A DNA stretch of 29,097 nucleotides from a virus. Under the pieces are notes generated by a model. The model ran no database searches. It was given only the letters and a program-made list of their open reading frames with translations, and was not told the DNA's origin. Shown here one piece after another: positions 498 to 14,388 of the stretch. A program made the position numbers and the translations under genes. The stretch spans positions 1 through 29,097 of the IMG/VR virus record IMGVR_UViG_3300024264_000127. The stretch is one strand, 5' to 3'. Positions within the stretch are counted from its first letter, which is position 1. Each line of letters begins with the position of its first letter.

Positions 498-665
498 TGT
501 TTTGTACGAAAAAGTAAGACCATCAGGGAATGGTGGAGTTACTATTTCCCAGACACCCTAAGTCTGGGATATGAAAGACGTGTTTAGACACCCTAGAGGT
601 CTTGGTTTAAGGGGTGTTACATACAGTTAAGAAATATGTTGATTCCTTAACTTGCTGATGTATTT
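498..665 (-). promoter_or_regulatory. Structured psbA 5' leader
   Basis: Noncoding stretch between the proximal promoter and the psbA ATG. It contains several inverted repeats: CCCAGAC/GTCTGGG with a 7-nt loop (548-568), AGTTAAG/CTTAACT with a 14-nt loop (about 627-654), and ACACCC/GGGTGT between them. The 10-mer AGACACCCTA (plus strand) occurs twice, at 551-560 and 586-595. A leader of about 160 nt from the proximal promoter, or about 237 nt from the distal one, is long for this genome, where leaders are usually about 20 nt. It could control translation or mRNA stability; this is inference. Confidence 0.5.
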
Positions 666-11556: not shown

Positions 11557-11672
11557 TCTGGGTCATTGCAGGCTCGCCACTTACTCTTTGACCAGAAGCA
11601 AGAAACTGGACGGTAGTAACCCACCCGCACCAACGGCATTTGAGAGATGCCGTAAACTCTTAAGAGGGTCAT
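11547..11672 (-). CDS. Possible small protein, 41 aa
   Basis: ATG at 11672 follows a good ribosome-binding sequence (GGTGGAG, five bases before the start) and the frame runs to a TGA inside the GC hairpin. The product (MTLLRVYGISQMPLVRVGYY, ending WRACNDPDPP) has no recognisable motif. The ribosome-binding site and position between two genes on the same strand support it, but the region could also be noncoding. Confidence 0.4.
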   Translation of the reverse strand: MTLLRVYGISQMPLVRVGYYRPVSCFWSKSKWRACNDPDPP

Positions 11673-12192: not shown

Positions 12193-12221
12193 ATTATAAG
12201 GTGTTGTGATTATGTAGTCAA
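12193..12221 (-). promoter_or_regulatory. Promoter of the 73-aa/86-aa operon, TTGACT-N17-TATAAT
   Basis: Minus strand TTGACT (12216-12221) and TATAAT (12193-12198), spacer 17. It begins three bases after the T-run of the terminator at 12224-12260. Confidence 0.75.
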
Positions 12222-12223
12222 GT

Positions 12224-12291
12224 AAAAGTAGGTTCCTGTCGCCGCTGCTTCTGAACCTACCAAAGGGAAGCACCGCAGTTGATTTCTCAAC
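12224..12291 (-). ncRNA. Candidate phage small RNA, about 68 nt
   Basis: A perfect sigma70 promoter (12298-12326) predicts a start near 12291, and an intrinsic terminator (GTAGGTTC/GAACCTAC, 12228-12260, then TTTT) ends the transcript near 12224. Between them lies a second hairpin, AGTTGA-GAAA-TCAACT (about 12276-12291), and a single-stranded segment of about 15 nt. There is no open reading frame of useful length (ATGAGTTGA stops at once). The next genes have their own promoter directly after the terminator, so this is more likely a free RNA than a leader. Confidence 0.55.
12228..12260 (-). terminator. Intrinsic terminator of the candidate small RNA
   Basis: Eight perfect pairs, GTAGGTTC with GAACCTAC, a 17-nt G/C/A-rich loop, then TTTT on the minus strand (12224-12227). 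Confidence 0.65.
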
Positions 12292-12297
12292 TCATAT

Positions 12298-12326
12298 ATT
12301 ATACTACCTCTAGTGCCCCCTGTCAA
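12298..12326 (-). promoter_or_regulatory. Perfect promoter TTGACA-N17-TATAAT inside the end of the 55-aa gene
   Basis: Minus strand TTGACA (12321-12326) and TATAAT (12298-12303) with a 17-bp spacer. The -35 box lies within the last codons of the 55-aa gene. No gene starts within 100 bp downstream. Confidence 0.75.
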
Positions 12327-14335: not shown

Positions 14336-14359
14336 GAAAAAGGGGGACTACTGTCCCCC
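14336..14359 (-). terminator. Intrinsic terminator downstream of pstS
   Basis: GGGGGAC, 4-nt loop, GTCCCCC (14342-14359) followed on the minus strand by a T-run. The run ends at the next gene's start codon. Confidence 0.8.
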
Positions 14360-14388
14360 ACTATACTTATATTATTCGATACTGTCAA
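14360..14388 (-). promoter_or_regulatory. Promoter overlapping the pstS stop, TTGACA-N17-TATAGT
   Basis: Minus strand TTGACA (14383-14388), TATAGT (14360-14365), spacer 17. Predicted start near 14353 lies inside the terminator hairpin. A transcript begun here lacks the first arm and escapes the terminator, while pstS transcripts are stopped. Confidence 0.65.

What the first reader, a model, noticed from the sequence alone, without database searches (positions are those of the whole stretch)
12224..12326. Stand-alone small RNA with perfect promoter and terminator
TTGACA-N17-TATAAT at 12298-12326, a GAAA-capped hairpin, an intrinsic terminator ending near 12224, and a new promoter immediately afterwards. 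No coding potential lies between. This is the layout of an independently expressed RNA of about 68 nt, perhaps an early regulator of host or phage mRNA.
Basis: partly seen in the sequence, partly recalled or inferred. Interest (0 to 1): 0.7.

Follow-up and report, generated by a model that had tools for sequence, protein, structure and literature searches.

The report
Conserved pseudoknot RNA of marine cyanophages
Large viruses of marine cyanobacteria carry a small, intricately folded RNA of about 65 to 70 bases that starts exactly where a strong promoter should fire, often sits right in front of a tRNA gene, and belongs to no catalogued RNA family; its job is unknown, but its folding is strongly preserved by evolution.

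Summary
Behind a 12/12 sigma-70 promoter lies a non-coding RNA (about 12291-12225, minus strand). It is a 5' hairpin followed by an H-type pseudoknot: S1 TGCTTC/GAAGCA, S2 GGTAGGTTC/GAACCTACT. I found 139 distinct cores in cyanophage genomes and IMG/VR contigs, and none in 84,980 bacterial and archaeal genomes (exact-pattern scan). They contain 53 different S1 stems; 136 of 139 keep all six pairs. L1 length tracks S2 length. The -10 box ends 6-7 nt before the 5' hairpin in 124 of 138 copies, so the hairpin should start at +1. No Rfam family matches, and I found no paper describing it. The intrinsic terminator is not conserved. In 58 of 140 classified copies a tRNA-Pro or tRNA-Arg starts 4-8 nt after S2; in 44 a coding gene starts within 45 nt. 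So in most phages the RNA is the 5' part of a longer transcript. It is nearly always single copy (one clear exception), yet sits before unrelated genes. A trans-acting, probably protein-binding phage RNA freed by processing is therefore most likely (about 0.5); a cis-acting leader is the main rival (about 0.3). Expression and function are unshown.

The parts
12298..12326 (-). sigma-70 type promoter TTGACA-N17-TATAAT (12/12); the -35 box overlaps the 3' end of the 55-aa ORF
   Evidence: in relatives the -10 box ends 6 nt (114) or 7 nt (10) before the 5' hairpin in 124 of 138 copies
12225..12291 (-). the RNA: 5' hairpin plus H-type pseudoknot; inferred +1 at 12291, 3' end not established
12278..12291 (-). 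P0, 5' hairpin GTTGA-GAAA-TCAAC; stem kept, sequence and loop variable
12273..12277 (-). conserved unpaired TGCGG joining P0 to the pseudoknot
12267..12272 (-). S1 5' strand TGCTTC
   Evidence: 53 distinct stems, 136/139 with all 6 pairs
12262..12266 (-). L1, CCTTT (consensus CCTT with 0-1 further base)
   Evidence: length coupled to S2 length
12253..12261 (-). S2 5' strand GGTAGGTTC
12252..12252 (-). L2, a single nearly invariant A between S2 5' and S1 3'
12246..12251 (-). S1 3' strand GAAGCA
12236..12245 (-). L3, GCGGCGACAG (consensus GCGGCKAYAG)
12227..12235 (-). S2 3' strand GAACCTACT
12193..12221 (-). second promoter TTGACT-N17-TATAAT for the 73-aa gene; visible in most relatives with this gene order, absent from the short gap in tRNA-linked copies

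Best explanation
A new family of phage-encoded structured RNA in large T4-like marine cyanophages. Host sigma-70-type RNA polymerase starts at the first G of the 5' hairpin. The nascent RNA forms the hairpin and then an H-type pseudoknot. In most phages transcription continues into a tRNA or a coding gene, and the RNA is probably cut free: by RNase P at the tRNA 5' end, or by RNase E in the AU-rich gap before a coding gene. The freed 65-80 nt RNA then acts in trans, most likely by being bound by a host or phage protein that reads the invariant bases TGCGG, CCTT, A, GCGGCKAYAG and the TTC/GAA inner pairs of S2. A decoy or antitoxin-like counter-defence RNA is my leading version of that. Shown here: the conserved fold, promoter spacing, contexts and copy number. 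Inferred: transcription, processing, trans action, protein binding.
For: S1: 99.4% of cells paired, 5 of 6 pairs with double changes; whole-structure covariation score 0.528 against 0.238 shuffled and 0.11 or less when slid; 53 distinct S1 stems, 136/139 fully paired. S2 outer pairs also covary. L1 and S2 lengths coupled, (7,7) 92, (6,6) 42, (7,6) 1. Promoter distance fixed at 6-7 nt even when P0 sits in unrelated sequence. One copy in 9 of 9 complete phage genomes that have it, and in 23 of 24 further contigs. Next genes unrelated: tRNA-Pro, tRNA-Arg, phrog_552, DUF6561, PurM, PurH, deformylase, tail tube, HNH, PMM/HAD. None in 84,980 bacterial and archaeal genomes by exact pattern. Analogous layout: cyanophage S-CREM1 has an orphan abiF RNA 4 nt before a tRNA-Gly, and abiF RNA is a demonstrated protein-binding antitoxin in C. 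difficile (PMC12373285).
Against: No expression data. No released 3' end shown. One contig (L165) has two copies, each leading a tRNA transcript, as a cis element might. No partner protein identified; two complete genomes carrying a Phd-like antitoxin next to it are suggestive only. 14 of 16 other cyanophage genomes tested lack it, so it is dispensable in the family.
Confidence: 0.5

Rival explanations
1. Cis-acting 5' leader: the hairpin at +1 and the pseudoknot protect or regulate whatever RNA is attached (pre-tRNA or mRNA), for example against 5'-end-dependent RNase E or RNase J, or as a translation leader.
For: It is always promoter-proximal with P0 at +1; the distance to the next tRNA is 5-6 nt in 54 of 58 and to the ATG mostly 19-24 nt; L165 has two copies, both leading tRNA transcripts.
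Against: Nearly always a single copy although the phages have many promoters; attached genes are unrelated in function (tRNAs, metabolic genes, tail tube); in the window's clade a second promoter separates it from the next gene.
Confidence: 0.3
2. A put-like antitermination RNA acting on the RNA polymerase that made it, as in phage HK022.
For: About 70 nt, directly behind a strong sigma-70 promoter, base-paired from +1; HK022 putL has this placement (PMC9378689).
Against: putRNA is two stem-loops, this is a pseudoknot; intrinsic terminators are not enriched downstream (0.16 per kb against 0.20 upstream); mostly one copy, often before single late or metabolic genes.
Confidence: 0.08
3. An antisense small RNA that pairs with host or phage mRNA.
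For: Small, promoter-driven, non-coding.
Against: The conserved bases lie within the pseudoknot core; the freely exposed P0 loop is variable; no conserved single-stranded seed outside the core.
Confidence: 0.07
4. A riboswitch or other ligand-binding leader.
For: H-type pseudoknots with invariant loops are common in small aptamers (own knowledge).
Against: No shared pathway among downstream genes, no room for an expression platform before tRNAs, no Rfam riboswitch match.
Confidence: 0.05

Closest known systems
abiF RNA (Rfam RF03085), orphan copy in cyanophage S-CREM1
   Same: Structured RNA a few nt upstream of a phage tRNA gene, with no AbiF-like gene annotated in the 2 kb shown
   Different: Different sequence and fold (37-nt interrupted hairpin); the two do not match each other's models
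Type III antitoxin RNAs (ToxI) and phage PhiTE pseudo-ToxI
   Same: H-type pseudoknot RNA; a phage can carry a mimic that blocks a host toxin (PMC3475682)
   Different: No tandem repeats, no toxin gene found next to it, longer L3, own promoter with a 5' hairpin
HK022 putL RNA
   Same: About 70 nt, starts right behind an early promoter (PMC9378689)
   Different: Two stem-loops, no pseudoknot described; two copies at the early promoters
wcaG, manA and PhotoRC-II RNAs of cyanophages
   Same: Structured RNAs in the same phages, partly in the same gene neighbourhoods
   Different: Separate elements with their own covariance models; none matches this RNA
RNA anti-CRISPRs (Racrs)
   Same: Small phage RNA that works as a decoy (PMC10651486); a functional analogy only
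   Different: Racrs mimic CRISPR repeats; no such resemblance was tested or seen here

Membership tests
Any Rfam 15 family | covariance model match at gathering score, or a meaningful weak match | tested here: not met
   nothing over the RNA in any copy scanned (best was SNORA5 on the wrong strand, E 8.5)
Type III toxin-antitoxin RNA | H-type pseudoknot | tested here: met
Type III toxin-antitoxin RNA | tandem repeats of the RNA unit | tested here: not met
   one unit per locus in 226 of 227 loci; the exception is two units 1.2 kb apart
Type III toxin-antitoxin RNA | adjacent endoribonuclease toxin gene | tested here: not met
   downstream proteins sampled from ten contexts match no toxin family
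HK022 put RNA | about 70 nt directly downstream of a phage promoter | tested here: met
HK022 put RNA | two stem-loop architecture | tested here: not met
   covariation supports hairpin plus pseudoknot
HK022 put RNA | read-through of terminators downstream | not testable with these tools
   terminators not enriched downstream, which does not settle it
Independently terminated small RNA | own promoter | tested here: met
Independently terminated small RNA | intrinsic terminator at the 3' end | tested here: not met
   T run not conserved and absent in tRNA-linked copies

The most novel reading that the evidence does not exclude
A phage RNA decoy: the pseudoknot is an orphan, antitoxin-like RNA that binds and neutralises a host antiviral protein (for example an RNA-cutting toxin), produced together with phage tRNAs that such toxins destroy and released from them by RNase P.
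Probability: 0.2. Interest if true: 0.88.

Novelty: new variant of a known kind. Interest (0 to 1): 0.68.

Why it matters
It adds an apparently undescribed, covariation-proven RNA family to some of the most abundant viruses in the sea, with a precise predicted 5' end and several isolated phages (S-SKS1, P-SSM2, S-SM2, Bellamy, S-B05, ACG-2014f, SynMITS9220M01, S-SCSM2R) in which it can be tested at once. If it is a trans-acting protein-binding RNA, it would be a widespread RNA-based tool of cyanophages against their hosts; if it is a leader, it would be an unusual shared 5' cap structure for viral tRNA and mRNA transcripts.

Tried and rejected
Rfam: no match at gathering or weak thresholds. 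Suspected it was manA or wcaG, because P-SSM2 and ACG-2014f have these nearby; they are separate elements. Suspected S-CREM1's annotated abiF RNA might be this RNA under another name; it is not. A relaxed pattern found further true copies with different S2 sequences, plus a few chance hits inside genes. Simple MFE folding alone was uninformative (z -0.96) because it cannot draw the pseudoknot. A search of cyanobacterial genomes with the covariance model could not be centred. The put-like idea was examined through downstream terminators, without support. 'Strictly one copy per genome' had to be given up after L165. The two opposite copies in G010 lie in loci L021 and L027 of one contig, both carrying the same neighbour gene, so they look like an inverted duplication of the contig.

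Full report
What was checked. The finding describes a promoter, a hairpin, a terminator and a second promoter on the minus strand at 12326-12224. The promoter is exact: TTGACA, 17 nt, TATAAT. Three such 12/12 promoters occur in the window where a Markov model expects 0.08, so it is unlikely to be chance. The window is a cyanophage contig: it carries wcaG and PhotoRC-II RNAs and eight tRNA genes, and its nearest record at this locus is Synechococcus phage S-SKS1, 94.8% identical over 250 bases. The -35 box is inside the end of a conserved 55-aa ORF of phrog_1184, so that hexamer is partly under coding constraint in this gene order; in other contexts it is not.

Relatives. Blastn with the RNA alone finds it in other cyanophages away from its present neighbours. 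Loci brought in by the neighbouring 73-aa protein, which is an unbiased way of sampling with respect to the RNA sequence, and pattern scans give 139 distinct cores. The corrected exact pattern finds none in 84,980 bacterial and archaeal genomes. That pattern demands CCTT, GTAG, TTCAG and GCGGC, so distant relatives would be missed, and the apparent invariance of those bases is partly ascertainment. The neighbour-gene loci nearly all show the same bases, which limits that worry.

Fold. The core reads TGCGG - S1(6) - CCTT(N) - S2(8-9) - A - S1'(6) - GCGGCKAYAG - S2'. Stem 1 pairs a strand that precedes S2 with one inside the S2 loop, so the two stems form an H-type pseudoknot. On the alignment of 82 sequences 99.6% of cells pair, against 85.6% shuffled and 17-57% when slid by 1-3 columns; the covariation score is 0.528 against 0.238 shuffled. 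There are 53 different S1 stems, of which 136 of 139 cores keep all six pairs. S2 keeps TTC/GAA at its inner end and covaries at the outer positions. When S2 gains a pair, L1 gains a base: (7,7) in 92, (6,6) in 42, (7,6) in 1, which is what the geometry of an H-type pseudoknot asks for. Related sequences inflate such counts, but the number of distinct stems is large. Energy folding of the window copy without pseudoknots gives only P0 and S2; S1 closes first in a growing transcript (-12.0 kcal/mol intermediate with P0 and an S1 hairpin).

The 5' end. A hairpin (P0) ends immediately before TGCGG. Its sequence changes (GTTGA/TCAAC, GTCAG/CTGGC, GTGGTT/GACCAC, GTTAGAG/CTCTAAC and others) and its total length runs from 12 to 73 nt, in some phages spanning the end of the upstream gene. 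The promoter was not used to choose the hairpin, yet the -10 box ends 6 nt before it in 114 and 7 nt before it in 10 of 138 copies, with almost nothing at other offsets from -40 to +40. So transcription should begin at the first base of P0, 12291 in the window.

The 3' end. In 58 of 140 classified copies a tRNA-Arg(tct) (35) or tRNA-Pro(tgg) (23) begins 4-8 nt after the S2 core, 5-6 nt in 54 of them. In 44 an ATG lies within 45 nt, most often 20 nt. No terminator fits there, and only 2 of 58 tRNA-linked copies have a T-rich tail. In the window's own clade the T run TTTTA is variable or deleted. RNase P would cut it from the tRNA-linked ones. That is inference.

Copy number and neighbours. Nine complete phage genomes that have the RNA carry exactly one (SynMITS9220M01, S-SCSM2R, S-SKS1, P-SSM2, two ACG-2014f, S-SM2, Bellamy, S-B05), as do two IMG/VR records of 231 and 239 kb. 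14 of 16 further cyanophage genomes have no convincing match, among them S-PM2, Syn9, P-SSM4, P-HM2 and S-RSM4 (run with stricter filters). Of 24 more contigs 23 have one; G021 (L165) has two, 1.2 kb apart, each as promoter-RNA-tRNA. The next gene varies widely: tRNAs, phrog_552, DUF6561 proteins, PurM, PurH, deformylase, a PMM-like HAD protein, tail tube protein, HNH endonuclease. S-RIM14 (L240) has the same upstream gene without the RNA, so the RNA is a removable module.

What it most likely does. A single RNA gene that keeps its own promoter and fold while its neighbours change behaves like a trans-acting gene. Conserved bases buried in a pseudoknot, and a free loop that drifts, point to a protein partner rather than antisense pairing. 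Two hints point to counter-defence. Cyanophage S-CREM1 carries an abiF RNA, a known kind of RNA antitoxin (PMC12373285), 4 nt before a tRNA in its tRNA cluster. And in S-SCSM2R the order is this RNA, tRNA-Pro, Phd-like antitoxin. Phages are known to use RNA mimics against host defences (PMC3475682, PMC10651486). None of this shows function. The double-copy contig and the fixed spacing to tRNAs keep a cis leader model alive.

Novelty. No Rfam 15 family matches the RNA. The library searches returned no description of it; the relevant papers (PMC2864571, PMC9964418) list manA, wcaG, PhotoRC-II, glnA and abiF only. Large automated surveys of viral RNAs may hold it unnamed; I could not check their tables.

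Noticed in passing
L251 (OP535465, S-CREM1) 1032-1068: Orphan abiF antitoxin RNA (RF03085) 4 nt upstream of a tRNA-Gly in a phage tRNA cluster, no AbiF-like gene annotated in the 2 kb shown; a candidate anti-abortive-infection RNA.
   Followed up: partly
L003 3210-3386 and several related loci: A Phd/VapB-like orphan antitoxin (phrog_375) lies just downstream of the RNA and tRNA-Pro in several phages (MEVYSVEYWQENW..., MQFYSVEYWQENW...).
   Followed up: partly
window 14342-14388: Promoter-like TTGACA-N17-TATAGT whose -10 box abuts a perfect terminator hairpin GGGGGACAGTAGTCCCCC-TTTTT at the end of the 320-aa gene; the predicted start lies inside the hairpin.
   Followed up: no
window 24784 and 2338, minus strand: Two further 12/12 sigma-70 promoters; what follows them was not examined.
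   Followed up: no
window 11566-11661 and 534-629, minus strand: wcaG and PhotoRC-II structured RNAs (Rfam) in the same contig.
   Followed up: no
L008 2057-2415: In ACG-2014f the order is this RNA, tRNA-Arg, manA RNA, tRNA, packed within about 2 nt of each other; S-CREM1 likewise has manA between tRNAs, although manA is catalogued as a cis-regulator of mRNAs.
   Followed up: no
P-SSM2 gene PSSM2_175 (L007 2105-2773): Annotated as purM but matches no Pfam family and phrog_3704 (called ferredoxin); the annotation looks doubtful.
   Followed up: no
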